This document shows positions 4,834-41,645 of a stretch of 45,041 nucleotides of DNA, piece by piece. A program made the translations under genes and the position numbers. Positions within the stretch are counted from its first letter, which is position 1; each line of letters begins with the position of its first letter. The notes under the pieces were generated by a model. It worked only from the letters and a program-made list of their open reading frames with translations, was not told the origin of the DNA and ran no database searches. The stretch comes from Thioclava sp. GXIMD4216 (GTDB lineage Bacteria > Pseudomonadota > Alphaproteobacteria > Rhodobacterales > Rhodobacteraceae), in assembly GCF_037949285.1 (NCBI RefSeq), contig NZ_CP149930.1, forward strand, positions 1-45,041, written 5' to 3'.

Positions 4834-4835
4834 TG

Positions 4836-14593: not shown

Positions 14594-14858
14594 CGTAAAA
14601 AGATCTCGACAATCAATGATATCAGACACTCTTATCTCGCGAGATTGTGAGCGACAATAAAAATCTCCTGCATTGAAAAGTAGAAGGAGAAGTTTCACCG
14701 AATTAGTTGGAAAACTTTGCTCCTGTTGTGCATGAGACCCCTTGCGCTCTTTTGAAGGTTGGCACCTGTATTTTGCCTAGTTCGTAAAGGGGGCTTCCTC
14801 TGCCCTGCTGTCTCCCAAACAAATTAACCATAAGCTTGCTTTCTAAAAGAATTCTAAA

Positions 14859-25047: not shown

Positions 25048-26522
25048 GAAGCTGTCCTGTTGTTGGTATTTAGGTTTGAAATGGCAATGAGAAGCTCTGT
25101 CGGCATTAGCGTCTCACGCCGCGTTGCTGTTGCCTCTTGGACGCGCTCCACGGCCACCTGCCGTACACGCCGCGCCTGATATTTCTTGACCGTTTGCGGC
25201 GATGTCTGATGTGCGATGACCATCGCATCACGCGTGCCTTGTTCGCCGCGGCTGATTGCCTGATCGCTGTGCAGCATCGTGCGGGTCGTGGTGAAGGAAT
25301 TTCCGGTCTGTTCCTTGAACACACGCGGAATGTATGTTGGGCTCGGCTGAGAGCCGTCAGCGTGCATGATCAGTGGGCGACCTGAGGCGCAAACCTGCTT
25401 GCGCAGCGCGGGCAGGTACCTGAAGTCGAAATCGCCTTGCACCACGGCATCAACGTAACGGCCGAACGTCGGCTCCAGCGGTACCACGAGGGGGTCGGGC
25501 GACCGGTGCCGCGTCTTGCGGATCTGTGTGTTGATGATCCATGCCCCGCCTTGCCAGATCAGGGTCTCGCCAAGGATGAGAGCCGCATCGGCGTTGCGCA
25601 GCGGGACGATACTGTAGAGACCGAGGATCGCGGCGGCGTTGCGCAGCCGGTGCCGGGTTGCCGGAGCTTTCGCGCGGGCCGCCTGGGTGAGCAGGGCATC
25701 GGCACGGTCCAACAGCGTGAGGGTCGTGTTGCCGGTCTCGAGGAGGGCGGCGAACTTGAGCGCGTCCTGGCCTTTTTCAAGTAATTCGTATCGGCCGAGG
25801 CGCTTGCGCAGGTAGCTGAGGTCGGTGTCGGAAATGTCCCCGACGTAGCGCGCAAACCGGTGTAGCTCTTCGACGGTGGCGCGGAGCGTGGCCCAGCGGA
25901 TGCCATGCTCCCGGGCGCGCAGGCGCGCCTCCAGAGCCTCTAGGTATGTCCGGAGGACAGGCTCGGTGAGGCCGATCTCCAACCAAGATTCTCGGGCCGC
26001 CCAGGCCAGTTGGCAGAGCTTTTCCCGCATCCGCAGAAGGATGTGGCGGGCAGGCGCAGCGGCCTTTTCCCCCGGCAGCCCCTGCGCGGCACGCCGCAGA
26101 GCAGCTTGCCACGGCTCCGGGAGGTCCCAGGGATGAACTGACACGCGCCGTGCTCGCGGAGATGGAACACGGGCGCAGGGGTCCCAGACGGAGCCCGTCA
26201 CCTTTTGGCGCGACGGTGCCGAGCAGTCTGCAGGGGAAGTCGGGCGGAGAAGCCGCCGCGCCGCTGCAATATTTTCGAGTTCGGAGGGCAGGATTACCTC
26301 CGCGGCAACGGTCAGCGTCTCGAGCCATGCGCATGGCTCCATGCCGGAACGCTGGGCCCAGGCGGCATAATCCGAGGGGGCCGGCGCGATCGTCGCGGTT
26401 GCCTTGATCTCCTCGAATAGTCGGTCAGCGGCGAGAAGGGCAGGGACGGGCAGATCGTGCAAGCCTTCGATATGCAGAAAGTGCTGCCATACGGGGCTTG
26501 CGAAAATCCGGTCGCGTGTCAT
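25044..26522 (-). CDS. Divergent tyrosine recombinase of the three-gene module
   Basis: A 492-aa protein with a core-binding helical N-terminal half and a recombinase-like C-terminal half. An Arg box (…LYSIVPLRNADAALILGE…, about residue 300-320) is present and the C-terminal box DAMVIAHQTSPQTVKKYQ supplies His and a Tyr (about 450-465). The usual HxxR box reads TTTRTMLHS, so its His is replaced. Catalytic competence is therefore doubtful and it may act as a partner subunit. Its stop overlaps the start of the third gene by 4 bases and its ATG overlaps the stop of the upstream recombinase by 4 bases, which indicates strict co-translation. Confidence 0.75.
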   Translation of the reverse strand: MTRDRIFASPVWQHFLHIEGLHDLPVPALLAADRLFEEIKATATIAPAPSDYAAWAQRSGMEPCAWLETLTVAAEVILPSELENIAAARRLLRPTSPADCSAPSRQKVTGSVWDPCARVPSPRARRVSVHPWDLPEPWQAALRRAAQGLPGEKAAAPARHILLRMREKLCQLAWAARESWLEIGLTEPVLRTYLEALEARLRAREHGIRWATLRATVEELHRFARYVGDISDTDLSYLRKRLGRYELLEKGQDALKFAALLETGNTTLTLLDRADALLTQAARAKAPATRHRLRNAAAILGLYSIVPLRNADAALILGETLIWQGGAWIINTQIRKTRHRSPDPLVVPLEPTFGRYVDAVVQGDFDFRYLPALRKQVCASGRPLIMHADGSQPSPTYIPRVFKEQTGNSFTTTRTMLHSDQAISRGEQGTRDAMVIAHQTSPQTVKKYQARRVRQVAVERVQEATATRRETLMPTELLIAISNLNTNNRTAS

Positions 26523-28423
26523 GTAAGTCGTCCTTCCCGTGCTTTCACAATTTCGGCGCGGCGCCGGGCAGTGTCCTGCTGCACGGCCTGGACCGAGCGC
26601 TTCGCGTCGATCCAGGAGTAGAAGCGTTGGATCGTTGCGACGGTGTCGCCCATGATCCTCGCCAGATCCTCCATCGATCTCCGGCCCTCGTTAATGTCGA
26701 TCGAACAGTAGCCATGACGGAAGTTGTGGGAACTCAGCGGCAGCCCGATCTCGGCAGAGCCTTCTGCCAGCCAAACGTCAAATGTGGCGGTGAGGAAACC
26801 GCTTTCGGTGGTATGGGCACGCTCGATAGGCGGGAACAGGCAGTGCGTTCGTGACGCCTCCGGGAACAGCGGGCGGATCTGCTCCAGGTAGAAGGAGAGG
26901 ATCTCGGGGCCCAGATCTCCTGCACCCCGCTTCCGGATGGTGATCGCCTCGAGCTCTTCGCTGCGCTCACTCAACCGTTTGCCGTTTTTCAATTCTTCGT
27001 TCGGGAATTTGATGACCGCATGCGGATCTCTTTCGGACAAATGGAGCCGGAGCGTCTTGCGCGGTCCGCTATGACGAAGTGAAAGGGTATTCTGACGTCG
27101 ATACGGAGCGCCCTCAAGTGCGATGGCAGCGTAAGCCGCGAGCAGGCCGAACATGCGGGCCCGGCGCAGGAGGTGCTTGGCCTCGCTGCGTGCGTTGTCG
27201 GAAAGCATGCCCATATGCGCGGGATCCGCGAGGAAGGTCAGGTCAAAGCCCTTGGTCTTTGCGGTCGAGAGGGTCTCGAGGGCACGTCTGTAATATTCGA
27301 CATGCTGGATCTGGAAGAGGATCTTCTTTTTGGGGTCGTTCAGAAGCGCTTCGCAGAATCTGCGGGTCTTCCGGCCCATCCGCCGGCCGGCGGCCCGGCC
27401 TTCCTGCAGCCGGGTCATCACCCGCGTCAGCCCGTGCAGGTACTCGGCGGCGTCTGCGGCACCGTTTCGTGCCAACAGACTGGCAAGGTCGATCACATAC
27501 TGGAAGTTCGTGCGCGCCGCGTGGGTCTGCTCACTCGTCCACTTGCCTAGCACGGAATCGATCCGGTCTTGGGTGAAGAGCTCTTCCAGGTCGGGACCCT
27601 TGGGGATGCTCATGCCGGATGTGAGCAGTGTTTCGACGTAGAGGCAGAGCGCAGCGCGATACCGGTAGCGGGCGCTGTCGGACAGGGGCTCGGAGAGATG
27701 CTCGTAGCGCTCGTCCTCGACCTGGGTGCGGGCGGCGCGATCGACCCAGGCCAGAATGGCGGACTGCAGGTGCAGCGGCAACGTCGCGAGGCGCCCTGTT
27801 TTTTTCGGGGCAGGGGTCACCGGACCCGGTGGCAGCAGGTCGCGCAAGCGGGAAAATTTTTGCAGGCTGTCGAGCGTCTTGAGGCTCTTGCGCAGGGTCT
27901 TCCGGCTGTGGGCATCGCGGCCTGCCAACAGCTCGGCGACGGTGTCCGGGGTCAGGTCGGGCGGCGCCATTTGGCGCTCGCGGCAGACATCAATCAGGGC
28001 CGGCAGCGAGGCGCGCTGGATCGGCAGCACAAGCCCGTTGCGCACCAGTATGTCGACGCGTGCGAGCAATGCCGTCCAGGCGTCTTCCCGACTGCGGCGC
28101 TCGGCCTTCTCCGTGGTCGCACCGGTGACGGCCGCGATGAGCCGCCGCGCCGCCCGCCACGACTGTTGGTAGGTATTTTCGGAAATGCCCGCCGCATGGA
28201 TCTGCCTCTTTAGCGCCGGCATCTTGCCGGAGAGCTTCGGCACCTTCCTGTCGAAGAGTTCGAGGTCGGCCGGGAAGCTGTCGAAGTCCGGTCCCTCAAA
28301 GCCGTGGAGCGCCAGGGCGATGCGGGCCTTGCGGGGGTCCTGCCGTTGCGCCGGCGTGCCGTGCGCCTCGATGTGGGCGATGGCGGTCTGCAGCGTGAGC
28401 AGGGTCGGGATCTGGTGCATCAT
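26519..28423 (-). CDS. Tyrosine recombinase, lead gene of the three-gene module
   Basis: About 634 aa from ATG 28423 (MMHQIPTLLTLQ), with GAGG eight bases upstream; an open extension to 28471 lacks a better start. The C-terminal catalytic domain shows a box I Arg (GAPYRRQNTLSLRH), a beta-hairpin Lys region (EELKNGKR), HNFRHGYCS (HxxR) and RIMGDTVATIQRFYSWID with the nucleophilic Tyr. The second conserved His is Asp in MGD. It is long for an integrase because of a large N-terminal helical region. It would integrate, excise or transpose the element together with the two coupled proteins. Confidence 0.85.
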   Translation of the reverse strand: MMHQIPTLLTLQTAIAHIEAHGTPAQRQDPRKARIALALHGFEGPDFDSFPADLELFDRKVPKLSGKMPALKRQIHAAGISENTYQQSWRAARRLIAAVTGATTEKAERRSREDAWTALLARVDILVRNGLVLPIQRASLPALIDVCRERQMAPPDLTPDTVAELLAGRDAHSRKTLRKSLKTLDSLQKFSRLRDLLPPGPVTPAPKKTGRLATLPLHLQSAILAWVDRAARTQVEDERYEHLSEPLSDSARYRYRAALCLYVETLLTSGMSIPKGPDLEELFTQDRIDSVLGKWTSEQTHAARTNFQYVIDLASLLARNGAADAAEYLHGLTRVMTRLQEGRAAGRRMGRKTRRFCEALLNDPKKKILFQIQHVEYYRRALETLSTAKTKGFDLTFLADPAHMGMLSDNARSEAKHLLRRARMFGLLAAYAAIALEGAPYRRQNTLSLRHSGPRKTLRLHLSERDPHAVIKFPNEELKNGKRLSERSEELEAITIRKRGAGDLGPEILSFYLEQIRPLFPEASRTHCLFPPIERAHTTESGFLTATFDVWLAEGSAEIGLPLSSHNFRHGYCSIDINEGRRSMEDLARIMGDTVATIQRFYSWIDAKRSVQAVQQDTARRRAEIVKAREGRLT

Positions 28424-28533
28424 GGTAGGCGCCTCGGGGCAGGAACTGGCGTTACAGGGAGAAAACGGCATTGGCGGGGGAGCGGTAACGAAAGGTCGTG
28501 ATCTTGCAGACCCCGCAAGACGGGGACTGCTTG

Positions 28534-29133: not shown

Positions 29134-29526
29134 GACAGGTCCGGGGTCAGTGTTGAAAAACACGACCTGCGGACTTCTGGTCTCAGAGAAGCCGTACGGT
29201 TTGGAAAACAAGCACGGTGAGCTCAGCCAATCAGCATGTCGCGGGGCCGCTCAGAACTGCGACCCAAAGCTCGGATCCTTGAGGTGGCGTAAGGCCGGCT
29301 CGATCCGCTTGTTCATGCTTCAGTAGTTGACCATTCAGGCACTCCCGCTCTCCCGGCGGGACCCTAGATGCAGCTAAGCACCGTGTCTTCGATAGGTTAG
29401 CTTTTCGCAGTTCTGCTGTCTAGAGAAACGCGCTGATGAGGGCAATTTCCGTGCGAGCCTCCTCACCAAGTGCGCACCTGCGCTATGCTCGATTGAAAAC
29501 GCCTAAAATTTTCTAGGTATTTCAAC

Positions 29527-29756
29527 GGTGTAACGCTGTTACAGCGGTGATACGCATCATGATACACTCGTAAGTCACTGATATAACTTATCTTATTAGG
29601 TATAAGTAACAGTGTAACGATTAATAATATAAGTATATGTATGAGAGAGTGTTAGGTACATGTTTACGCGTATAGTTATACGTTTTGAGCGTTACGCCTG
29701 TTACGGCGTTACATTTAACTAAGTAACTGTTGTTATTTGGTAATTTTGTTACGCCT
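29527..29756. repeat. Cluster of GTTAC/GTAAC inverted and direct repeats
   Basis: Copies: TGTAACGCTGTTACAG (29530-29544, inverted pair), AAGTAACAGTGTAACG (29604-29619, direct pair), GCGTTACGCCTGTTACGGCG with a third TTAC following (29690-29713), AAGTAACTG (29720-29728) and TTGTTACGCC (29747-29756). All lie in an AT-rich tract. The same pentamer recurs between the excisionase-like gene and the recombinase (about 28452 and 28485) and at 28534-28600. Plausible binding sites for the excisionase or recombinases at an attachment site. Confidence 0.6.
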
Positions 29757-30216
29757 CTTCCGACGGTCCAGGCGGTAGGTGTTACCGTTGCCTTGCAAGA
29801 TCGCGGAAGCGCTGAAGCCTTAACAGGTTCAGGCGCTTACTGGCCCCTGCGAATAGTTCATGCCGAGACCGTCCCAGTATGGTCATCCCGGCACTGCTGG
29901 GACGTGGCGAAGCAATTGCGCATGATAAGAGTGGAGGCGCGAGACATGCCTCAGGGCATCGCCCAACTGTCCTGAGTGTAGTGTAGCTCTGGGCGATCAC
30001 CAGATGCAGCGCATGATGGAACCTTCGGACTAACTGCGCGTAGTATCATCGTACGGTCTTGGTGAGACGCAGTGAAGTTATTGACTGGATAACGAACTGC
30101 GGGTATCAACATGACCATAGGGTTTCGCGATCGACTGTGAGATTCCCCCCGCTGCCGTGAGGCAGTCCAACCGCAAGGGTAGATAGGCGCAAGCCGAAGA
30201 GGTTGTCGAGATAGCC

Positions 30217-30238
30217 AAGGGGTCCTGATGGGCCCCTT
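30217..30238 (-). terminator. Hairpin after the 30247-30987 gene
   Basis: AAGGGGTCC pairs with GGGCCCCTT (one wobble) over a TGAT loop, nine bases beyond the stop of the minus-strand gene. No clear T-run follows, so efficiency is uncertain. Confidence 0.4.
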
Positions 30239-30246
30239 AGGTGTTT

Positions 30247-30987
30247 CTAGGGCCTGCGATACTTGACCGTCTTGTTCTCACGAGCCTTCCCGATGATCGC
30301 GGGCAAGCTGGTCTTCGAGCCGTCCTCTTGTTGCTCCTTGGGGTAAGCACTTTCGACGAACAGCCGGAACTTGTGGCGAATTCCATCGAACCTGCCGGCA
30401 CCCGTCTTGAGAGTGAAGTAGGCGGTATAGAAGTGCCCGTTCAGGTCGCGCAGCGTGGCGTTGTAGCAGCCATAGTTTCGATCTGTGGGGGTTACGTAGA
30501 TTTTGTTCAGCATCAGCTGCCCCATGAGTTGAGGGAGCTGAAATGATGTCTGATGTCTTATCGGATCGTAACAACGGGCACGTTGATGGTCCCAGATGGT
30601 CAGACCTCGCCACTCTTCCTGCGCTTCGTTTGCCTTGCAGGTCCAGCAGTGTGAGGAGTAGCTGATGAGAACCTTGACCACCGTCCCATCACCTAGGTCG
30701 TAGCTCTCGACGTGCGGCTTAAGGTGTGTAACCTCGACATGTTCATCCGAGAGCTGATGCCCTGTGAAGGGAGCGCCGGACGTATGATGGAATGCTCCGT
30801 TATTATGGAGCTTGAAATGAAACTCTGGCACAGTTGCATCCAGTTGGCGCAGTATTGGGGCTGGTCGCTGTGGGCGCAGCGTCCAAGATTGGCATAAATC
30901 GAACCGATCTCTCAGCACCTCATATAACGACCCAATGGGACAAGGGCCACAGAGGCAAGCAGATATTCTCGAGGGAGAACTCTTCAT
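30247..30987 (-). CDS. Hypothetical protein
   Basis: Up to 246 aa; the true start may be internal, since the first 45 residues look less protein-like and no clear ribosome site is visible. The core (about 60-246) reads like a folded soluble protein, with a CWTCK pair of cysteines, an HQTSFQLPQLMGQLML helix, and strands …YGCYNATLRDLNGHFYTAYFTLKTGAGRF. The C-terminus is basic (KARENKTVKYRR). I do not recognise the family. It stands alone between the recombination module and the CBASS operon. Confidence 0.55.
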   Translation of the reverse strand: MKSSPSRISACLCGPCPIGSLYEVLRDRFDLCQSWTLRPQRPAPILRQLDATVPEFHFKLHNNGAFHHTSGAPFTGHQLSDEHVEVTHLKPHVESYDLGDGTVVKVLISYSSHCWTCKANEAQEEWRGLTIWDHQRARCYDPIRHQTSFQLPQLMGQLMLNKIYVTPTDRNYGCYNATLRDLNGHFYTAYFTLKTGAGRFDGIRHKFRLFVESAYPKEQQEDGSKTSLPAIIGKARENKTVKYRRP

Positions 30988-31342
30988 ATCAATAAAGCGA
31001 TCTTCTAAACTTAAGTCTTGTGCTCCGGATCGCTAAGGGGATCACACCAGTCGTCCACCTCAGGAACAATTCGCGCTTGGCGAATAATGCCGCAGCCTCG
31101 TCCCAAATAATTTAGCACGACAACGCGATGAGTAACGTATTCATGCAGGATCAAAACGTACGGCTTTACGGCTTAGTGAATAAAGCCTCGGGAGATCCGT
31201 GAACTATGGCGCAGAGGTAAAACCCGATTTCAGTTGGACAAAAAGCACCATGACCTCACCCCGAAAAGTGCAGCGAGGCCTTGCGTATGTCTATCAAACA
31301 CCTTGACAAAATACAAAAGGGGAACGATAGGCTCATGTGGTA
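30988..31342. other. Gene-free stretch upstream of the CBASS promoter
   Basis: No gene or recognisable site. Only short open frames without ribosome sites occur. The CBASS promoter begins at 31343. Confidence 0.5.
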
Positions 31343-31371: not shown

Positions 31372-31427
31372 GTTACCCTAACCGATTGAGGGGGGCAATC
31401 GGCAACTGGGTAATAGAGGAGTTGTCC

Positions 31428-32672
31428 ATGCCCCTTGATCACACGTCCCCTGGGCTTGACGCCCTTCTGATTGCGACCGTTCTTCAGATGGAGCTAAGCC
31501 CCCGCGACAACAGGGTGGCTGAGAAGCGCTACAAGCTGATCCCATCACACATTGAGCGTGAAGGAAGTCCTTTGCGCCTCTATGTCGATAATGCTTTGGT
31601 CTACGCACAGGGCTCCAGAGCGATTGGAACCACGATCGTTCATGGTGCGGATGAGGATCGTTTCGACTTGGACGCCATTCTCGAGTTCAATACGCCGTTC
31701 GGCTGGTCACCGCGCCGGGTGTTGGATGCACTCTTCGAGGCCTTTCAAGGGTTTCCAGACGTGCAAAAGATCGAACGCTGCACGCGGTGTATTCAACTTC
31801 GCTTCGCGTTCATGCACCTCGATGTGACGCCTATGGATCCTGCGCTGAAGCCGAGGGCAGAACGGGTCGGTGACATCTATCACAGCCCTGATGAGGGGCA
31901 CGACGAACGCCACAAGGTAAACCCTTATGGATTTGCAGAATGGTTCAAAGGGCAAATTTCTCTTCCCAGCCAGATGTTCCGGGCCCAAGTCCACAGCCTG
32001 CGCAAGCAGCTTGAGATCAAGGATCGGCTGCGGCCCGGCATCATCGTCGCCGATGCCGATATTGACGACCTGCCAGAGACGGTCGACCCAATTCAAGATT
32101 CACCACAGGTACTCGCGCTGAAGTTGATGAAGCGTTATCTGAACCTCAGGTATGCCAATAGGAACGAGAAACGCCCCATCTCGGTCTATCTGTCAAAAGT
32201 TGCCGCACAAATCCCCCCGAACGCATTCGGGATTTGCGCCCAGCTTGAAGACCTTGGATCTGAACTCGATCGACGGATGAAGTACGCTCTCGATACTGGC
32301 CGTCGTCCGGAAGAGCGCAATCCAGCGCTTCTACAAGAGAACTTCAACGATCGCTGGCCTCAGAATACGTACCAGATGGAAATGTTCCGCGGGGACCTGA
32401 GATACCTCTCGACCGAACTCCAACGGGCGCGGACGTCTGATGTGGCACAGATTCAGAAGATCTTCGATGGATTGTTTGGGGAACGGATCAGTGGCAACGC
32501 CGTCAGGACATACATGGACAGCTTGTCGAATACTCCGCAGAAAAGCACGTTTGAATTGGGGAAGGGCTTTGTAGCAGCACCATCGCTCCTTTTATCTGGC
32601 GCTGCACGCGCTGCAGCAACCTCCAAGGCGCCCGCCCACAATTTCCATGTAGGTGAGCTGCGGAAGAAATGA
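31428..32672 (+). CDS. CBASS CD-NTase (cGAS/DncV-like nucleotidyltransferase)
   Basis: 414 aa from ATG 31428, set by GAGGAG seven bases upstream. The catalytic core has the GS motif (G62-S63), the D80-L-D82 pair in RFDLDAILEF, and the third metal Asp at D132 (MHLDVTP). This is the complete acid triad of cGAS/DncV-like enzymes, which make cyclic di- or trinucleotides on phage infection. A helical C-terminal domain follows. The next gene overlaps by 4 bases (ATGA). Presence of an E2-like gene without E1 and a Cap5 effector places it in the short type II CBASS group. Clade G is my guess; the exact nucleotide product cannot be read from the sequence. Confidence 0.9.
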   Translation: MPLDHTSPGLDALLIATVLQMELSPRDNRVAEKRYKLIPSHIEREGSPLRLYVDNALVYAQGSRAIGTTIVHGADEDRFDLDAILEFNTPFGWSPRRVLDALFEAFQGFPDVQKIERCTRCIQLRFAFMHLDVTPMDPALKPRAERVGDIYHSPDEGHDERHKVNPYGFAEWFKGQISLPSQMFRAQVHSLRKQLEIKDRLRPGIIVADADIDDLPETVDPIQDSPQVLALKLMKRYLNLRYANRNEKRPISVYLSKVAAQIPPNAFGICAQLEDLGSELDRRMKYALDTGRRPEERNPALLQENFNDRWPQNTYQMEMFRGDLRYLSTELQRARTSDVAQIQKIFDGLFGERISGNAVRTYMDSLSNTPQKSTFELGKGFVAAPSLLLSGAARAAATSKAPAHNFHVGELRKK

Positions 32673-33178
32673 AGCGGAGCAAGCCCAGATCAGCGGAATC
32701 CCAGGTTCAGCGGATGGAGCATAGATGGCCATCCCTAGAGATGCGCGTGTATCGCCCGCTGACCCTAAATGCGACGCCCTCGATCCAATGGATAGGGCAG
32801 ATCAGGGGCTTTCAGCGAGAGTATCGGATACTTGCCCAATGGAGTTGGCTGGAAACCGCTGCGGTACCGTATGTCTTCTTGCTCGAACCAGCTTTAAAGC
32901 CGCGGAACGGCGAGGATTATATCGACATCCCCCATCTGATCTTGGACAGCGAGGTCCCAGAGAACTCCGCGCTTTGCCTGTTCGACCCTGATGAGGGTCA
33001 ATGGGACAATACCATGTGGATTTCGGACACGATCATCCCTTGGGCATCAGAATGGCTTCACCATTATGAGTTCTGGCATGTCGACGGCATCTGGCGAGGA
33101 GCCAATGCACCGGGCCCAATCAACATACGTGAAATGCGTCGACTTGCCGAAGGAGGCCAAGATGACCAGAGGAGCTAG
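32669..33178 (+). CDS. E2-like CBASS ancillary protein (short type II)
   Basis: A 169-aa protein with the layout of bacterial E2 proteins of short type II CBASS: WIG.I…Y.I in the N-terminal strands, an IPHL segment (H89), the probable catalytic cysteine C103 in ALCLFDP, and the PWASEWLHHYEFWHVDGIWRG helix block (about 124-144) typical of the family. In characterised systems such E2 proteins act on the C-terminus of the CD-NTase, conjugating or tethering it and raising its activity, without an E1. There is no E1 or JAB isopeptidase gene here. It is coupled to both neighbours: 4-base overlap upstream, 17-base overlap with cap5. Confidence 0.85.
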   Translation: MKRSKPRSAESQVQRMEHRWPSLEMRVYRPLTLNATPSIQWIGQIRGFQREYRILAQWSWLETAAVPYVFLLEPALKPRNGEDYIDIPHLILDSEVPENSALCLFDPDEGQWDNTMWISDTIIPWASEWLHHYEFWHVDGIWRGANAPGPINIREMRRLAEGGQDDQRS

Positions 33179-34298
33179 CCCAAAGACCAAAACCCGCATG
33201 CTCGTCTGGGGCCGTGCCGCTGGTCACTGTCAATACCCGGGCTGTTCTAAACGCCTTGATGAAGACTTGATTTCCGGCGACCTACGAAAGAACAATGCCT
33301 ATCTTGCCCACATAATAGCTTCCGATCCTGGTGGAGAGCGCGGCGACCCAATTCTGTCTCATGAACTCTCGGACGACCCTGACAACATCATGCTGATGTG
33401 TGATCCACACCACCGTGAGATCGATGACCCGAAGAAGAGGGATCGATATAGCGTCAGCGTCTTGCGGCAGATGAAGCACCAGCACGAAGACAAGGTCGCG
33501 CATTTGTTCTTAAATCCTTTAATTAAACCTGCCCATGTAGTGCGGTTCGCGGCTTCCATCGGAGAGAATGAAACCAGCGTCCCGCTGGCTGACTGCATTG
33601 AGGCCATGAGGAATGAGTTCTATCTGGCAGACCGCCGCCCGATCGACATCCAGATGCGTGACATTGCGACCAAGGACAGTGACCCTGATTACTATCCGAC
33701 AGCGCTCAAGATTCTGCGTTCGAAATATGATCGCGAAATCCGAGGAAGATTTGAGGAGGGAGAACTCCAGCATCTGGCGATCTTTGGCTTTGCGCCGATG
33801 CCCATCTTGATGGAGCTGGGTCGGCTTCTATCTGACCTCTCGGCTGTCTCCCTATACGGCAAACACCGCGAACCGAAACCTGGCTGGGCCTGGCCGAACG
33901 ATCGACCGCCTCTCGGTTTCTCAATGTTCAGGGGAAGAACGGGATCGAAAAAGGTCGCACTGAAGTTGTCAGTTTCAGCAGAAATCGTCAACGAGCGCGT
34001 GATAGCCGCATATGGTGACGACGACGTTTCCATTTGGGAAGTTCGCAGTAATCGGCTCGGCACTTCGGAGCTGCGCAGCCAGAACGACTTGTCAGAGTTT
34101 CGCAAAGTCGTCGGAAAAACCTTTGACGCTATCAAAGATCAACACGGGATGGATGTCGAGCTATCCGTATTCCCGGCTGTGCCAACGGCCTGCGCCATCG
34201 AGTTCGGCCGGACATGGCAGCCGAAGGCGCACCCGGGCTTTCGAATCTTCGATCAGGTGAAAGAGCAAGGTTTCATCGAACGGCACTCGATTACCTGA
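33162..34298 (+). CDS. cap5: Cap5 effector: HNH nuclease fused to SAVED domain
   Basis: 378 aa from ATG 33162, chosen because AAGGAGG lies 6 bases upstream; the open frame extends further back only over the E2 gene. The N-terminal HNH domain has C23/C28, the AHIIA motif (H50), and NIMLMCDPHHREID (N75, C80, H83/H84). The C-terminal SAVED domain (about 165-378) contains the characteristic LAIFGFAPMPILMELGRLLSDL segment that binds the cyclic-nucleotide signal. Binding causes tetramerisation and degradation of duplex DNA, killing or halting the infected cell. Length matches known Cap5 proteins. Last gene of the operon. Confidence 0.93.
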   Translation: MTRGASPKTKTRMLVWGRAAGHCQYPGCSKRLDEDLISGDLRKNNAYLAHIIASDPGGERGDPILSHELSDDPDNIMLMCDPHHREIDDPKKRDRYSVSVLRQMKHQHEDKVAHLFLNPLIKPAHVVRFAASIGENETSVPLADCIEAMRNEFYLADRRPIDIQMRDIATKDSDPDYYPTALKILRSKYDREIRGRFEEGELQHLAIFGFAPMPILMELGRLLSDLSAVSLYGKHREPKPGWAWPNDRPPLGFSMFRGRTGSKKVALKLSVSAEIVNERVIAAYGDDDVSIWEVRSNRLGTSELRSQNDLSEFRKVVGKTFDAIKDQHGMDVELSVFPAVPTACAIEFGRTWQPKAHPGFRIFDQVKEQGFIERHSIT

Positions 34299-34625: not shown

Positions 34626-35318
34626 TTATGCGGCTTGATTTATGCTCCCGTGAAGTATGTCATTGACTGCAATAGAAGGCACCTTGAACTTCTTTACCTC
34701 GAAACATCCTGGTCTTGGCACAGCAAAATTTGGCTGAAACAAGTTTGCAATAACATGTTCATATGCACTCCATTTTTCAGAAAACTCCATGCCCCGGACG
34801 GACGCGAGCATCTTGCGACTGGGGAGTTTGCAATGACGCGCAGCCACGCCGACATCTTTAAAGATAGTTGTCATGGCATTGATGCCAAGTGAGACGTCGT
34901 GCCGCTGGCTCGGCGGCCAGACCAGGTGCTGCGATGCCCAGGCAGACAAGGGCAGGGTTTTCGCATGCTGTCTGTTGCCGAGTAGCAAGGGCAATTGATG
35001 ACCTAGGATCATCGTGTGAGCAACGGATATGCAACTCGCTTCCACTTGGTTCAGAAGAATTTTTCTCTCTTCTAGACTGAAGGCATGGTGCATTTTGCTC
35101 ATTGGCAGAAAATACACGGCGCCCCAGATGCGGCGTTCATTCTGGCTCTCTGGCACCCGACGCAGCAGGTTCCAGCTCTTTCCGATGTAGAGATTGCCAT
35201 TCATCAGGAGCACGTAGATTCCTGGTGCCTCGGGCAGATGCGGAAGGTGAGAATTCGACAGGATGCGGTAGAGATGGGAAAAGAGGGCGCCGGAAGCGCC
35301 CTGAGAAGAGTATGACAC
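34626..35318 (-). CDS. GIY-YIG nuclease-like protein
   Basis: A 230-aa protein with an N-terminal GIY-YIG core: G33-I-Y35, then Y44-I-G46, followed by the K..NLLRRV helix carrying the conserved Arg (R53/R54). The rest (about 80-230) is not recognisable and lacks an obvious second DNA-binding domain. GIY-YIG domains cut DNA with a single metal ion; the missing clear downstream Glu leaves activity open. It begins 41 bases after the stop of the AAA+/M41 protease on the same strand, so the two form an operon. The pairing is unusual and suggests a conflict system. Confidence 0.72.
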   Translation of the reverse strand: MSYSSQGASGALFSHLYRILSNSHLPHLPEAPGIYVLLMNGNLYIGKSWNLLRRVPESQNERRIWGAVYFLPMSKMHHAFSLEERKILLNQVEASCISVAHTMILGHQLPLLLGNRQHAKTLPLSAWASQHLVWPPSQRHDVSLGINAMTTIFKDVGVAARHCKLPSRKMLASVRGMEFSEKWSAYEHVIANLFQPNFAVPRPGCFEVKKFKVPSIAVNDILHGSINQAA

Positions 35319-35359
35319 GTGAGGTATTCCGAAGTTTCTTGAAAGGAGAAAGGCAGGGA

Positions 35360-37420
35360 TCAGGCTTTGAGGGTCAGTTCGCTGAGCCAGGGCCGCAGCT
35401 CTGCGGCATTCATCTCGCGCCGGACAAGCAGCTCCTCAGCAAGGCGTTCGAGCAGATCCCGGTGCGGTTGCAGGAGCTCACCCGCTCTCTGTTCGAAGCC
35501 CCAAAGCTTGACGCGCACGCGACCCCAATACTTTTCGGGTATCCGGGTCGTGTCAGGTTCTCCGAGCCAGGCGGGGCCATGAATTCCAAGTCCCGTTTGT
35601 CGATCGAAGAACATCTGCAGGTGCGTGGCGCGCTCGAGATCGCTTCCCGGACCGCCACCGCTGCCAGCACTGACATTTCCAAGGACAAGGCGCTCCGCGG
35701 CACGGCCGCTCATATGCATCATCATTTCACGCTCGAACTCTGCCAGCGTTCCCTCCCGGAGTGCAGACTGTCGTATCGTCCGTCCGTCTTCCTGTCCGAT
35801 CACCACGCGCTCGACGGCGGCGGCGCCGAGCAGCCGCGCCGCGACCAGGGTGTGCCCGGCCTCGTGCAGGGCAATGCGGCGCTCGAGGGCCGGCTGGTCC
35901 AGTCGCCCGCCGCCCAGCTGTACCGCGAGCAAGTCGGCGTCGAAGGGGGCCCCGTCGCGGCGCGCCTTGGCCCTCGCCGCGCGAAGCGTCGCGTCGATCT
36001 CGGCCGGTGTCTGCCCAGCACAGAGCCGCGCTAGGGGCGTCACATCCGCGGCACCGGGAAACACCTGCCGGAGCATGTGGGCAATCTGCGCAAGCGGCGG
36101 CCTCGTGAGCTCCACGATCTGGTCGAAGCGGCCAGGCCGGACGATCGCAGGATCGAGCGTGTCTACGGCATTGCAGGCCCCAACCAAAACGGTGCCGTCG
36201 AGTGCAAGGAACTTATCGATTTCCCTCAGTAACGTGTTGATCACCTGCCTTCGATAATTGCTGTTACGCTCACTGTCCTTGGCATCCCGGGCACCAAATG
36301 AATCGATCTCGTCGAGAAAAACAATGCAGGGACGGCGCGATGCCGCGTCCGAGAATGTCTTGAGCATGGCCCCAAGCATATCACCGAGATGACCGCGTGA
36401 TTGCCATTCGCCAGCGCTGGCAATGACAATTTCCACATCCGCCGACCGTGCGATGGCTTGCGCCAACACGGTCTTACCAGTTCCTGGCTCGCCATAAAAC
36501 AGCAAGGACCGCGGGATCTCCGACCAGCGTGCCCCACCCGTTTTGCATGCCTGAATATCCACAGCGAGGTCTCCCGCCATGCGATGCGCATGAGACGACC
36601 CTCCGATTTCTTCAAGGGTGAGGCCATCCTGACGCACGGAATGATCAGGCTGGACCATCTTTTGCAGCGCTTGGGCCGCCGCGACGGCCGTCGGCGCTCG
36701 CAAGGCCATGAGAATGGATGGGGGGGCGATTTGGGCCAGAGCGGCGTCATCCGGCAGCAGGCGCAGGACAGCTTCGCGGTCCTCTGCGCTGGAAACGTTG
36801 TAGAGCTCGCAGATCAGGACGAGCATGATGATGCGATTAATGGGTGCGAGGCGTTCCGCATATGGCAGGATGCGCTGGAGAGGTTCAGACAGCTCCAGTC
36901 CGTTGGGTAGTAAGATCAAAATGGGGGCCGACAAGGGCAGCGCTTCGCTGATGCGATTTTCAAAGGCGGCCTGCTGCGCCTTGGAAACTTCCCCGGTGTT
37001 CTGGGTGTCGGGCTTGCAGAGCTGGAGGACCGGCCCACTCGGACGGTGCGGGCTGCGCGTGTAAACCTGCACGTCTGGAGGCAGCACGCCGTGTTTCAGA
37101 AGATAGTCGATGAGGGACAGTTCGCGCGGCTTGATGCCGGCCCACATACTCACGCCTCCAGAACGCAGAAGCCGCTCCTGCAACTTTTCCCCGGGTCCGA
37201 AGCTGGCGGCCATACGGATGAGCATGAGGAGGCGGCCGGCGTGCGTGGTTATGATGGTGCGTTCCGTCCGAGAAGACCGCGTGCCGCCGCTGTCGCCATC
37301 CCAGACCTCGATCGGGGCAACGTCTTCGCTGTCGACGCTTTCACTCAGGCATCTGCTCCAGGTGACGAAACCTGGCAGCCAATCTGGCGGATAACTGCTG
37401 GTAGTATGGGTATTGGTCAT
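35360..37420 (-). CDS. Soluble FtsH-like AAA+ protease with M41 zinc-peptidase domain
   Basis: 686 aa from ATG 37420 (MTNTHTTSS), fixed by AAGGAG six bases upstream; an open extension to 37462 has no ribosome site. An N-terminal region (1-260) of unknown fold replaces the two membrane helices of FtsH. The AAA+ domain has GEPGTGKT (310-317), VFLDEID (367-373) and the RPGRFDQ arginine-finger box (428-434). The peptidase has HEAGH (519-523) and a distal Asp in GSDLERAT (about 594) as third zinc ligand. It unfolds and degrades proteins with ATP. Absence of transmembrane segments and a GIY-YIG partner downstream set it apart from housekeeping FtsH. The target is unknown. Confidence 0.88.
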   Translation of the reverse strand: MTNTHTTSSYPPDWLPGFVTWSRCLSESVDSEDVAPIEVWDGDSGGTRSSRTERTIITTHAGRLLMLIRMAASFGPGEKLQERLLRSGGVSMWAGIKPRELSLIDYLLKHGVLPPDVQVYTRSPHRPSGPVLQLCKPDTQNTGEVSKAQQAAFENRISEALPLSAPILILLPNGLELSEPLQRILPYAERLAPINRIIMLVLICELYNVSSAEDREAVLRLLPDDAALAQIAPPSILMALRAPTAVAAAQALQKMVQPDHSVRQDGLTLEEIGGSSHAHRMAGDLAVDIQACKTGGARWSEIPRSLLFYGEPGTGKTVLAQAIARSADVEIVIASAGEWQSRGHLGDMLGAMLKTFSDAASRRPCIVFLDEIDSFGARDAKDSERNSNYRRQVINTLLREIDKFLALDGTVLVGACNAVDTLDPAIVRPGRFDQIVELTRPPLAQIAHMLRQVFPGAADVTPLARLCAGQTPAEIDATLRAARAKARRDGAPFDADLLAVQLGGGRLDQPALERRIALHEAGHTLVAARLLGAAAVERVVIGQEDGRTIRQSALREGTLAEFEREMMMHMSGRAAERLVLGNVSAGSGGGPGSDLERATHLQMFFDRQTGLGIHGPAWLGEPDTTRIPEKYWGRVRVKLWGFEQRAGELLQPHRDLLERLAEELLVRREMNAAELRPWLSELTLKA

Positions 37421-37690: not shown

Positions 37691-38296
37691 CTACCGCCAC
37701 ATCCTGGCGGCGATGTTCTGTTCTTCCTTGCCGACGGCATCCGCGTAGATTGATGTCGTCGAGAGCTGCGCATGGCCGAGCCAGCGCTGCAGCATGTGCA
37801 GCGGCACGCCCTGAACGGTCGCATGCACGCCGAAGCCGTGCCTGAGCCCCTTCGGACTACGATGCGGGGCATCGGGAACGCCCGCCTCGATCATGACGCG
37901 CTTCACGATCTGCCAGACCCGCACCCGGCCGAGGTTCCAGATCGGCTGCGCTGCCTTCTTCCGCGAGCGCTGCGCCTCGCGGATGCCATGCGCGGTGTTG
38001 AGCGTGTCGAGGAATTCCGTCGGGACGGGCACGGAGCGGAAGATCACCTTCTGCCGCCCTTGGGCGTCCTTTCTCTTCTTCAATGAGCGGATCGCGATAC
38101 TGCCACCGGAAAGATCGACCCGGGCCGGGGTGATCTCGAGGAGCTCGGACGGCCGACAGCCGGTCCAGTGCAGCATCTCGCAAAGCGTGCGGTCACGGGC
38201 GGGCTGACGCCGGGCGGCGGCGAGATAGGCCGCCCGCTCTTCGGCGTTTAGATAAAGCCGGTTCCCAGCGGTGTCATGGAGACGCATTTCACTCAT
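37691..38296 (-). CDS. Short tyrosine-type site-specific recombinase
   Basis: A 201-aa protein that is essentially only a catalytic domain, with no N-terminal core-binding domain. Active-site residues: R48 (GCRPSELLE), K73/K74 in the beta-hairpin, R152 in SPKGLRHGF (the usual His is K149), H175 in LGHAQ and the nucleophile Y184 (TSIYADA). Such minimal integrases are common on proteobacterial plasmids and may resolve dimers or move small cassettes. A perfect 31-bp palindrome with dif-like half-sites lies 86 bases upstream (38382-38412) and could be its target or operator. Confidence 0.88.
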   Translation of the reverse strand: MSEMRLHDTAGNRLYLNAEERAAYLAAARRQPARDRTLCEMLHWTGCRPSELLEITPARVDLSGGSIAIRSLKKRKDAQGRQKVIFRSVPVPTEFLDTLNTAHGIREAQRSRKKAAQPIWNLGRVRVWQIVKRVMIEAGVPDAPHRSPKGLRHGFGVHATVQGVPLHMLQRWLGHAQLSTTSIYADAVGKEEQNIAARMWR

Positions 38297-39178: not shown

Positions 39179-40081
39179 ATGCAGCTTCAGCCCGAAATTA
39201 TGGATCTCACACCAAGAGATACGAGTGCTCTTTTGGACCTTCTGTTCCAAGACGGGCGCGAGGTCTTTGTCATGTTGGACGGCGCTTTGCTCCCAGACTT
39301 ACCGGAGAGACTGCAGTCGCACCCTCATGAAGCATGCTGCCTGATCCCATCATCAGAAGAAGAAACTGCAAACGCACTGCCATGGATCGCGCGCATAGAG
39401 CGTCACGACGCTCTACTGCGGGATCTTCTCTCTGACAAAATGCCATCTGGAATGTGGTCCATAGACCCAGGGCTGTTTTTTCTATCGACAAAAAGCCTGT
39501 TGGAGCTGACACGCCATTTAAGAAAATTCCACAGACCCCGCGTTGCAGAACGCAAGTCTGCGCTTTTCCTGCGGTATTGGGAGCCCGGGTTACTTGGGCA
39601 ACTACTGAAAGCTGGCATCCCACATATACAAGCACTCATCTCACCAGACATTTCGGTGGTCAGCCGGGTCGGGTCGGATGTGTACAAGTTTACCGCCATG
39701 GAAGAGGCGTGGGATCGACCCGGACAGCTGACTACAGAGCACGTTCGGCAAATCGGCCAAATGCTTACAATGCGCCGTCGGAGTGCCTTGTCAGACAAGA
39801 TCATCGAGACCTTTCCAGATCATGTCTCTCACCTCAAACGCGCGGCTGTCGAACGCGAGGTTCAGGATGCATGGATGAGTGCAAACGACTTTGGGCTACG
39901 TAACGGACAGATACGTGCAAAATTCATCATCACGGCTGTCGCACTGGCTCCAGGTTTTCACAGACACGAAATTATAGAGACTATGTTTCGTCAATCTCCT
40001 GACCCGGATCAGACCTTCAGAGATTACGACACCGTCATTAAGCGTCGCTTCACCGCCATGGCAAAAGAGGAGCGCGATTAA
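39179..40081 (+). CDS. DUF4123 adaptor/chaperone for a T6SS effector
   Basis: A 300-aa soluble protein with the DUF4123 layout: FVMLDGALLPDLPERL near the N-terminus (about 29-44), LPWIARIE (about 67-74), W..DPGLFFLSTKSLLELTRHLRKF (about 92-114), then …RYWEPGLLGQLL (about 130-141). DUF4123 proteins hold effectors and load them onto the VgrG spike. The next gene, a nuclease toxin, begins at the stop codon, so they are translated together. No VgrG or PAAR gene is in the window; loading must use a chromosomal spike. Confidence 0.85.
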   Translation: MQLQPEIMDLTPRDTSALLDLLFQDGREVFVMLDGALLPDLPERLQSHPHEACCLIPSSEEETANALPWIARIERHDALLRDLLSDKMPSGMWSIDPGLFFLSTKSLLELTRHLRKFHRPRVAERKSALFLRYWEPGLLGQLLKAGIPHIQALISPDISVVSRVGSDVYKFTAMEEAWDRPGQLTTEHVRQIGQMLTMRRRSALSDKIIETFPDHVSHLKRAAVEREVQDAWMSANDFGLRNGQIRAKFIITAVALAPGFHRHEIIETMFRQSPDPDQTFRDYDTVIKRRFTAMAKEERD

Positions 40082-40851
40082 TGGTTCTGCCTGCTGTCGT
40101 CTGGGGAGGAATCTGGGTTGCTGGCGCGATTGGCGCGCGCTTGGCTGCACGGCAAGTCATTCGCACGGTCGTCCGCCGCGCCGCACAGATGGCCGCGAGC
40201 AGGGCAGCACAAGCGGCCTATCGCGCGGCCGTTACAGCGGGCACACTTTCACCGGAAGACTATACCGACATCGATAACCAGTTTGCAGACGATCAAGCGA
40301 AGGCAGACGCGCTCGCTAAAGAGATGGAAGCCACTTGTGCAGCAGACCCTGCTAAATGCGAAGCATGTGAGGCCAATCGAGGACACCCCCTTGCGCGAAA
40401 CTGGAACATGTCAGCCCGCGCAAGACAGTATCAGCAATTCATCACCGGTTTTCCGCGCGGAGTAGAATACAACTATAATGGCGTCTATTTCGACGGTTTC
40501 TGGCAACCGATCTGTACGCTGGTCGAGGCCAAAGACAATTATGCTTTCATGTTAGTTGTGCAGACCGATGATGGCGGATTTTTCAGCGATGCTTCCATCA
40601 CGTCCGTAGATTGGCGTTTCAAACGAGCAGCAGGTGATCCCGCCGCAAAAATACAGTTGGTTGGCGAGGCTAGGCGGCAAGACGGAGCTGCACGCCCGCG
40701 TCCGCCCATTCAGCTACAATGGCACTGCGCCCAAATATCTCTGGTCATTATTCTCACCAAAGAATTCCAGTCTGCAGGAGTGCCGATTGTGCCTATCTAC
40801 ACACCAAATCCGAACCATGCAGACCCACATAGTGGCTATATTCAGGAGTAA
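40081..40851 (+). CDS. Tox-REase-5 nuclease toxin, probable T6SS effector
   Basis: 256 aa. The N-terminal 50 residues are Ala-rich and hydrophobic, perhaps a chaperone-binding or membrane segment. A cysteine cluster (C86, C93, C96) precedes the Tox-REase-5 domain (about 105-240): RARQYQQFITGFPRGVEY, then GVYFDGFWQPICTLVEAKDNY with the metal-binding D138 and the E149-x-K151 pair of the restriction-endonuclease fold. The domain degrades target-cell DNA. It is sandwiched between the DUF4123 adaptor and an immunity gene 2 bases downstream, the standard toxin order. No PAAR or MIX domain is evident. Confidence 0.88.
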   Translation: MVLPAVVWGGIWVAGAIGARLAARQVIRTVVRRAAQMAASRAAQAAYRAAVTAGTLSPEDYTDIDNQFADDQAKADALAKEMEATCAADPAKCEACEANRGHPLARNWNMSARARQYQQFITGFPRGVEYNYNGVYFDGFWQPICTLVEAKDNYAFMLVVQTDDGGFFSDASITSVDWRFKRAAGDPAAKIQLVGEARRQDGAARPRPPIQLQWHCAQISLVIILTKEFQSAGVPIVPIYTPNPNHADPHSGYIQE

Positions 40852-40853
40852 CC

Positions 40854-41645
40854 ATGTACAGAATTGCGGGTTTTACACCCGGTGTTCGGGCCGCCAGCGA
40901 CATTGATGCAATCCGCGAAGAGTTCGACCGCATCATACGGCTTGCAAATCATGTACGCTCCTTACATCCGTTGTTCGGGCGGTTCGGCGTAATGGACACA
41001 GAGATCAGCGCACGCGGGCAAGCGCTCATGGATAAAATGAGCCTTCAGGATGATCAAAGTGCTGAAGATATTGCCGAACTTGACCGCTTGTCCGCCGCTC
41101 CGAATACGACATTTCTTTTCGATGCGCCCGAGAATTTCCTCAAATCCATGATTACAGCGCATCAACGCAAAACAGTAGATGACCCTGACGCACCCATATC
41201 ATTATCCGTGCGCACGGATGGCACCTATGAGGGCGAGATTGAACGCGTGGTGTACTGCAACGGTCGAGATTTCGGCAGTATCACGCTCCAAATGCCCATG
41301 CACGATAACACAGACTTCTGGTATCAGAACTGGACGGTCATGCGTGATATCATGTTCGGGGTCATGGATATCTGGAAAGTCGACTGGATCGTCGCCCAAC
41401 CGACCATGTATGTCGGGTTACAGAAAAACCTCTTCCACGATCGCCGGTCATTTGGGTGGATGGGCTGGACACCGCAAGACCTGTCCCGTGGGGCAAACTC
41501 TGCTCTGGCCAGAATGGAGCCTCACAAAAGCGGTACGTTCATGCTTCTTCAGGAGCGGATGATGACCATGAAAGCGCCGGATATCGACGCCTGCAACAAG
41601 GCAGAGGCCTATCTTTTGGATCGCGGGGCCTTGGCGCTCCTGTAG
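40854..41645 (+). CDS. Imm52-like immunity protein
   Basis: A 263-aa soluble protein with AGGAG just upstream of its ATG and only 2 bases after the toxin stop. Residue pattern (W…NWTVMRDIMFGVMDIWKVDWIVAQP and FGWMGWTP) agrees with the Imm52 family, which pairs with Tox-REase-5 toxins. It should bind the nuclease and protect the producer and siblings carrying the plasmid. The module therefore also acts as an addiction-like trait. Last gene of the three-gene cargo operon. Confidence 0.8.
   Translation: MYRIAGFTPGVRAASDIDAIREEFDRIIRLANHVRSLHPLFGRFGVMDTEISARGQALMDKMSLQDDQSAEDIAELDRLSAAPNTTFLFDAPENFLKSMITAHQRKTVDDPDAPISLSVRTDGTYEGEIERVVYCNGRDFGSITLQMPMHDNTDFWYQNWTVMRDIMFGVMDIWKVDWIVAQPTMYVGLQKNLFHDRRSFGWMGWTPQDLSRGANSALARMEPHKSGTFMLLQERMMTMKAPDIDACNKAEAYLLDRGALALL

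What the first reader, a model, noticed from the sequence alone, without database searches (positions are those of the whole stretch)
34626..37420. AAA+/M41 protease without membrane anchor paired with a GIY-YIG protein
The protease has intact Walker A/B, arginine finger and HEAGH, but a 260-residue unknown N-terminus in place of FtsH's membrane part. It is followed 41 bases later by a GIY-YIG protein. A protease releasing or destroying a nuclease, or cutting a phage protein while the nuclease cuts DNA, would be a new defence logic. It lies between CBASS and an integrase. I cannot name a described system with this pair.
Basis: partly seen in the sequence, partly recalled or inferred. Interest (0 to 1): 0.7.

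Follow-up and report, generated by a model that had tools for sequence, protein, structure and literature searches.

The report
Soluble protease with swappable nuclease partner
In a bacterium of the Rhodobacter order, a protein-shredding machine sits beside a likely DNA-cutting enzyme, and its relatives keep the shredder while exchanging the cutter, which suggests an undescribed mobile two-part system, perhaps protection against invading DNA.

Summary
Confirmed: a 686-aa AAA+/M41 protease without clear membrane segment (35360-37420, -) is followed after 41 bases by a 230-aa GIY-YIG protein (34626-35318, -). The pairing is not chance. In 110 non-redundant, mostly Rhodobacterales, loci of this protease family, 82 have a nuclease-type gene beside it: 65 a zinc-ribbon/T5orf172-like GIY-YIG upstream, 9 PD-(D/E)XK-type and 3 weakly CoiA-like upstream, and 5 (the window's clade) one of two dissimilar GIY-YIG types downstream. 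Of the other 28, 11 lie near contig edges. Seventy-nine phage FtsH-type loci gave no hit. The nuclease type needs 8-9 changes on the protease trees; between the window and Salipiger marinus, similarity is lost at the end of the protease gene. The genes travel on mobile DNA, in six loci with a serine recombinase overlapping tRNA-Met. Best reading: a portable protease-nuclease module, probably anti-invader defence, in which the AAA+ protease controls the nuclease. Module: well supported. Defence: unproven. Direction of control: inferred. In two loci of one genome an AAA+ protein without M41 takes the protease's place. Eight full-text searches listed no description of it.

The parts
35360..37420 (-). 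Soluble AAA+/M41 zinc protease, 686 aa
36635..37420 (-). Family-specific N-terminal domain (residues 1-262) in place of FtsH's membrane part; residues 61-256 predicted alpha/beta followed by helices
   Evidence: Residues 61-262: no Pfam family met by more than one of 47 members, best E 0.036; best PDB sequence match E 0.02; secondary structure from the AF2 model; occurs as a separate protein in G311
36470..36493 (-). Walker A GEPGTGKT, residues 310-317
   Evidence: G310, P312, G313, G315, K316 invariant in 52 members
36302..36313 (-). Walker B end, DEID, residues 370-373
   Evidence: D370, E371, D373 invariant
35852..35866 (-). Zinc-protease motif HEAGH, residues 519-523
   Evidence: H519, E520, G522, H523 invariant in 52 members
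35639..35641 (-). D594, presumed third zinc ligand (role recalled from FtsH)
   Evidence: invariant in 52 members
34626..35318 (-). GIY-YIG-type nuclease-like partner, 230 aa, 41 bases downstream
   Evidence: conserved Y35, Y44, R54, E93, N115; UvrC GIY-YIG profile match E 0.0028
35214..35222 (-). GIY motif, residues 33-35
35181..35189 (-). YIG motif, residues 44-46
35040..35042 (-). E93, presumed catalytic glutamate (role recalled from GIY-YIG enzymes)
   Evidence: invariant in 11 aligned sequences
37691..38296 (-). Small tyrosine recombinase (201 aa), upstream member of the window-type cassette
   Evidence: Pfam Phage_integrase E 7e-20 over residues 16-187; 91.5% identical and in the same place in Alloyangia pacifica, a 56-residue match upstream in Leisingera L046

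Best explanation
A portable protease-nuclease module of mobile DNA in Rhodobacterales. Shown by sequence: a soluble AAA+/M41 protease with a family-specific N-terminal domain keeps a neighbouring nuclease-type gene on the same strand, and the nuclease family has been exchanged repeatedly while the protease stayed. Inferred: the two act together; the AAA+ ring, probably a hexamer, binds its nuclease (or a guard of it, or an invader protein) through the N-terminal domain, holds the nuclease in check by remodelling or degradation, and lets it cut DNA when a phage or rival element titrates or triggers the ring. The likeliest purpose is defence against invading DNA by the mobile element that carries it.
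For: 82 of 110 loci have a nuclease-type neighbour. Within the fetched loci, HMM hits of the five nuclease types lie within 1 kb of the protease gene, on the same strand and on one fixed side per type, with one exception at 1,244 bases. None of 79 phage FtsH-type loci matched (a control of distant hosts). Nuclease types: T5orf172 in 21 and MUG113 in 16 of 48 neighbours scanned at E 0.1 (the 48 include four PD-(D/E)XK-type proteins and one doubtful ORF), sub-threshold in the three whose scores were shown; the one zinc-ribbon protein given to PHROGs matches endonuclease family phrog_681 at E 3e-7; PDDEXK_5 above Pfam cut-off in one of two scanned. The tree needs 9 label changes against a minimum of 3. 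Downstream partner differs from the end of the protease gene on in L045. Reverse view: of 33 zinc-ribbon GIY-YIG places in 394 genomes, 22 have a protease match within 1.2 kb and one more an interrupted copy. Mobile setting: 12 plasmid records, four copies in one Paracoccus genome, serine recombinase whose 3' end overlaps tRNA-Met by 44 bases in six of six loci with that tRNA. In the window the pair lies beside CBASS, which has no match in the stretches fetched of a colinear A. pacifica plasmid.
Against: No experiment. Flanking genes give little support for defence: 116 PADLOC models were matched by 132 non-core neighbours (of 321 non-redundant), each by at most three proteins, mostly type I restriction and mads_2 among the 25 shown; how many proteins match in all is not shown, and there was no control set. 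Two nuclease places (G311) have an AAA+ lacking M41, and eight further ones had no protease found, one of them cut off by the contig end and one with a weak AAA remnant. Seventeen protease loci with upstream sequence have no recognised nuclease. Trees of the N-domain and of AAA/M41 each need 8 changes, so nothing shows that the N-domain in particular tracks the nuclease, and well-supported branches of the N-domain tree force only one change. Homing-type nucleases are themselves mobile (recalled).
Confidence: 0.5

Rival explanations
1. Mobility or persistence function of the element, not defence: the nuclease is a homing-type or DNA-processing enzyme, and the protease turns over recombinase, repressor or nuclease so that transfer is timed.
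For: Linked recombinases: serine recombinase in 36 of 110 loci, tyrosine recombinase in the window, A. pacifica and as a partial match in L046; relaxase-type neighbours; GIY-YIG with zinc ribbons and PDDEXK_5 recall homing endonucleases (recalled); several copies per genome.
Against: The module keeps its order with different recombinases or none recognised in the fetched stretch; exchange of the nuclease for other families does not suit a site-specific homing role.
Confidence: 0.27
2. Toxin-antitoxin-like addiction: the nuclease is toxic to its host and the protease, as antitoxin, destroys it.
For: Short gaps or overlaps between the genes, plasmid carriage, partner exchange.
Against: A large ATP-dependent protease is an unusual antitoxin (recalled); in G311 the AAA+ protein has no M41 hit; zinc-ribbon GIY-YIG genes occur without a protease found.
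Confidence: 0.13
3. No functional link: unrelated cargo genes that happen to travel together.
For: 17 protease loci with upstream sequence lack a recognised nuclease; 8 of 33 zinc-ribbon GIY-YIG places had no protease found beside them.
Against: Fixed side, strand and short spacing over deep divergence, replacement of one nuclease by another at the same place, and no hits in the phage FtsH-type loci.
Confidence: 0.06
4. Protein quality control by a plasmid-borne FtsH copy.
For: AAA and M41 parts superpose on FtsH.
Against: Far below the FtsH equivalog cut-off, no clear membrane segment; the genome has its own FtsH-like gene; patchy spread, 34 of 394 family genomes including the window's own.
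Confidence: 0.04

Closest known systems
Housekeeping FtsH (AAA+/M41)
   Different: No clear membrane part; family-specific N-terminal domain; 155 bits against the 600-bit FtsH equivalog cut-off; mobile, with nuclease neighbour
FtsH ternary conflict systems (eLife 2020, PMC7159879; passages seen)
   Same: An FtsH-type AAA+ with an extra N-terminal domain (there an inactive AAA copy) in a conflict setting
   Different: Those have MoxR and vWA genes and a strong tie to multicellular bacteria; no MoxR or vWA hit among the 20 window proteins scanned with Pfam; here M41 and a nuclease neighbour
IetAS (AAA ATPase plus subtilase; recalled)
   Same: AAA+ ATPase coupled to proteolysis in a small operon; the best PADLOC hits of the protease are IetA models, to the AAA part
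   Different: Here the protease part is fused zinc M41 and the partner a nuclease; 82 bits against a 510-bit cut-off
SNIPE, membrane GIY-YIG anti-phage nuclease (PMC13190303; passages seen)
   Same: GIY-YIG domain as DNA-cutting effector; upstream partners here are T5orf172/MUG113-like
   Different: No clear transmembrane segment and no DUF4041 hit in the window protein; separate AAA+ protease partner
AAA+ or GTPase plus nuclease restriction systems such as McrBC (recalled; titles seen)
   Same: Nucleotide-driven ring plus nuclease in one operon
   Different: McrB has no protease domain (recalled); nuclease families differ and are exchanged here
CalpL, SAVED-Lon protease of type III CRISPR (title seen)
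   Same: Protease as signal step in defence
   Different: No SAVED hit in the protease; the SAVED protein next door belongs to the CBASS operon

Membership tests
FtsH | AAA plus M41 catalytic residues | tested here: met
FtsH | N-terminal membrane anchor | tested here: not met
   window protein: highest hydropathy window 1.57 against 2.47 for own FtsH; borderline in some relatives, 32 of 89 above 1.6
FtsH | NCBIfam equivalog score of 600 bits | tested here: not met
   155.3 bits
GIY-YIG superfamily | Conserved GIY, YIG, R, E, N residues | tested here: met
GIY-YIG superfamily | Profile similarity to a solved GIY-YIG domain | tested here: met
   UvrC N-terminal domain E 0.0028, over 35 profile positions; best non-GIY hit E 0.21
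GIY-YIG superfamily | Fold by confident model | tested here: inconclusive
   AF2 mean pLDDT 37.9
IetAS | IetA-level score | tested here: not met
   82 bits against 510 (NF042959)
IetAS | Subtilase partner | tested here: not met
   no subtilase hit among the 20 window proteins scanned with Pfam
FtsH ternary conflict system | Inactive AAA copy before the active AAA | tested here: inconclusive
   AF2 secondary structure suggests it and one p97 row spans model 26-547, but profile comparison is not significant
FtsH ternary conflict system | MoxR and vWA genes alongside | tested here: not met
   none among the 20 window proteins scanned with Pfam; in other loci only the commonest 25 of 115 neighbour families were shown, without either
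SNIPE | Transmembrane segment and DUF4041 | tested here: not met
CBASS component | Protease or GIY-YIG protein matches a CBASS model at a level of its own | tested here: not met
   no effector model; TRIP13 models matched by the AAA part only (46.6 bits, E 8e-13), weaker than the IetA hit of 95 bits
Anti-phage defence system | Protects against phage | not testable with these tools
   needs plating assays

The most novel reading that the evidence does not exclude
A proteolysis-gated immune module: an AAA+ zinc protease with a dedicated recognition domain serves as a common chassis into which different DNA nucleases (GIY-YIG of three kinds, PD-(D/E)XK, CoiA-like) are plugged, the protease holding or destroying the nuclease until an invader disturbs it, with the whole unit carried by tRNA-targeting elements and plasmids.
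Probability: 0.27. Interest if true: 0.85.

Novelty: new variant of a known kind. Interest (0 to 1): 0.62.

Why it matters
If true it adds regulated proteolysis by an M41 enzyme to the ways in which bacteria keep a DNA-cutting weapon safe, and the natural exchange of nucleases on one protease chassis gives a ready comparative set for testing how AAA+ rings recognise partners. The family is common enough (34 of 394 family genomes, the window's own included) for testing in laboratory Paracoccus or Rhodobacter strains.

Tried and rejected
N-terminal domain as a second, degenerate AAA copy: profile comparison of residues 60-262 against 263-460 gave E 0.036 and 0.067 with about 1% probability and no sensible register, so it stays a guess from the predicted strands and helices.

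N-domain co-evolving with nuclease type: not supported, 8 changes on either tree.

Window GIY-YIG as a relocated copy of the upstream zinc-ribbon type: profiles align in register at the GIY/YIG motif but with E 0.14 and 0.4% probability; undecided.

Dense defence-island context: not shown. AF2 model of the GIY-YIG protein too poor to use. Direct repeats at the ends of the L077 element: none of 7 bases or more between the two end stretches compared, and one unrelated 16-base pair in the whole locus. Viral contigs: of 80 kept loci one (L124) joined the family set; the other 79, matched over the AAA/M41 part, served as controls.

Correction: an earlier count gave 24 zinc-ribbon GIY-YIG places with the protease; recounted it is 22 of 33, plus one interrupted copy.

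Limits. The set of 118 loci is a choice: the window, 7 of 12 plasmid records, the 29 loci other than the window's own (42 match rows in that call; only the best two candidates per genome scored), the best 80 of 391, and L124; the 12 loci were not used. Gene calls in scripts are my own codon-usage calls. Nuclease HMMs were built from neighbours first found by clustering, so one search counts spread within these families and says nothing of other nuclease types. Alignment A3, used, holds four PD-(D/E)XK-type rows and one doubtful ORF (L118) among its 48. The trees are of the quick kind with long branches, so the number of exchanges is unsure. Related loci are not independent.

Full report

Close relatives. 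Besides the window's own, the protein search gave 7 relatives of the GIY-YIG protein and 18 of the protease's N-terminal part. Shared longest-contig lengths (46,734 and 26,068; also 120,216 and 69,757) suggest that the two lie together elsewhere. In Alloyangia pacifica plasmid NZ_CP022194 the order recombinase - protease - GIY-YIG is the same, with recombinase 91.5%, protease 83% and GIY-YIG 47% identical. The region is colinear with the window: a block at 29234-31076 is 90% identical, while the CBASS proteins of the window have no match in the two stretches fetched.

The wider family. Plasmid, genome and family searches and one viral contig gave 118 loci, 110 after removing near-copies. Clustering of neighbours showed a recurrent order: a 175-aa protein of unknown function, a nuclease-type gene, the protease, often a serine recombinase, with a ribbon-helix-helix gene on the other strand (so named in the records). 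HMMs of these clusters found in the 110 loci: zinc-ribbon GIY-YIG 65 (63 upstream, two overlapping the protease ORF by my gene calls), PDDEXK-type 9, CoiA-like 3, window-type GIY-YIG downstream 3, a second downstream GIY-YIG type 2, none 28; the 175-aa protein in 59, serine recombinase in 36, ribbon-helix-helix in 46. Of the 28, 11 have under 900 bases upstream; several of the 17 others are shortened proteases or small distinct lineages.

What the neighbours are. Of 48 upstream proteins scanned, T5orf172 is matched by 21 and MUG113 by 16 at E 0.1 (four of the 48 are PD-(D/E)XK-type and one is doubtful); the three whose scores were shown lie below Pfam's cut-offs. K-L-G-x-S ... R ... E is conserved, and the one member given to PHROGs matches endonuclease family phrog_681 at E 3e-7 over the same part. 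The record names one 'GIY-YIG nuclease family protein' and one of the other type 'group I intron-associated PD-(D/E)XK endonuclease'; the latter passes the PDDEXK_5 cut-off, while L094 of the same type had no Pfam hit. The CoiA-like assignment is weak (best CoiA-type E 0.05, DUF7830 E 0.0003). The second downstream type (L044, L045) shows a GIY-YIG motif in the sequences, without a Pfam hit for L045.

Exchange of the nuclease. On a tree of 81 proteases the nuclease label needs 9 changes (least possible 3, shuffled mean 15.5); well-supported branches force at least 7 for the zinc-ribbon type. The five loci with a downstream GIY-YIG gene form one supported group among zinc-ribbon ones. Separate trees of N-domain and AAA/M41 need 8 changes each; there well-supported branches force 1 and 6 for the zinc-ribbon type. 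Between the window and Salipiger marinus L045 the six 50-base blocks before the last one of the protease gene are 82-96% identical, the last one 52%, and the blocks beyond the stop 18-52%; the BLAST match ends 21 bases before the gene's end. The partner gene thus differs from the gene boundary on.

Is it chance? Hits of the nuclease HMMs in the 1.06 Mb of family loci lie beside the protease, on one strand and one side per type, except one CoiA-type hit at 1,244 bases; 79 phage FtsH-type loci (0.79 Mb) give none, a control of distant hosts. Starting from the nuclease: 25 of 394 genomes hold 33 zinc-ribbon GIY-YIG places; 22 lie within 1.2 kb of a protease match, one beside an interrupted copy (G303), and 10 have none listed. 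Of these 10, fetched, two (both G311) are followed by a separate protein like the N-terminal domain (E 6e-10, 6e-6) and an AAA+ protein without M41 hit; one (G150) has a weak AAA remnant, one (G321:C42) is cut off downstream; in the rest no relative of the protease was found.

Mobility. Paracoccus sp. S-4012 has four copies in different surroundings. L073 and L077 share 9.75 kb at 95% with the same left edge and different left flanks; the right edge of L073 is a contig end. Of 44 loci scanned for tRNAs, 14 carry the serine recombinase cluster; six of these have a tRNA-Met, and in all six the recombinase gene overlaps it by 44 bases, the mark of an element inserted there. Relaxase-type neighbours occur. 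Among 132 of 321 non-redundant other neighbours each PADLOC model matched at most three proteins.

How it most likely works. Shown: conserved proximity, exchange of the nuclease, intact residues, mobile carriage. Inferred from AAA+ proteases in general: a ring that unfolds and cuts proteins. Inferred here: the N-terminal domain takes the place of the membrane part and serves partner or trigger recognition; the ring keeps the nuclease inactive or short-lived until invasion. The opposite sign (proteolysis removes an inhibitor, perhaps the 175-aa protein, and arms the nuclease) is possible, but none of the five loci of the window clade gave a hit to the 175-aa HMM. The G311 variant argues that remodelling may matter more than proteolysis. 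Defence is favoured because the module is exchanged, patchy, borne by mobile DNA, and in the window sits beside CBASS at a place that varies between two plasmids; mobility or persistence functions remain serious rivals.

Literature. Eight full-text searches of a library of openly licensed papers (listings only, except passages of two papers) showed no description of this pair. PMC7159879 (passages) describes FtsH-type AAA+ proteins with an inactive N-terminal AAA copy in MoxR-vWA conflict systems; PMC13190303 (passages) reports a GIY-YIG nuclease, SNIPE, that defends against phage. In PADLOC the protease matches IetA, TRIP13 and other models by its AAA part only, and the GIY-YIG protein only weakly the candidate PDC-S14 (E 0.006).

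Noticed in passing
window 31386-34298 (+): CBASS operon: cyclase (PADLOC E 5e-206), E2-like protein (7e-44) and HNH-SAVED effector (7e-134); no match in the stretches fetched of the colinear A. pacifica plasmid.
   Followed up: partly
window 19120-22836 (+): 1238-aa SNF2 helicase with DrmD-like front (PADLOC E 7e-182) and a C-terminal part like type III restriction enzymes (E 1e-78); no other DISARM gene among the window proteins scanned.
   Followed up: partly
window 39179-41645 (+): DUF4123 protein, then a Tox-REase-5 nuclease toxin (also PADLOC candidate PDC-M17A, E 2e-10), then an unknown protein in immunity position: T6SS-type effector set.
   Followed up: no
window 969-14698: Two-partner secretion set: ShlB/FhaC-type transporter 3169-4833 and, by eye, a 3046-aa filamentous protein 5558-14698 (-) and a shorter one at 969-3176; looks like contact-dependent inhibition.
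   Followed up: no
window 23062-28471 (-): Three consecutive large ORFs overlapping by four bases (661, 492, 650 aa), without Pfam hits apart from a weak UreF match; by eye like a trio of tyrosine recombinases, but a simple motif pattern did not match them. The third has a 36% match over 90 aa in A. pacifica.
   Followed up: partly
L216:2776-4811 and L217:2841-5002 (-): Variant in which the protease's N-terminal domain is a separate gene followed by a different AAA+ protein without M41 hit.
   Followed up: yes
L067:8218-9180: In Paracoccus sp. S-4012 a protein with two helix-turn-helix stretches and a possible N6-methylase part (E 0.007) follows the protease; its cluster has four members in four loci.
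   Followed up: no
L077:9166-11118 and five other loci: Large serine recombinase gene whose end lies inside tRNA-Met, overlap 44 bases in six of six.
   Followed up: partly
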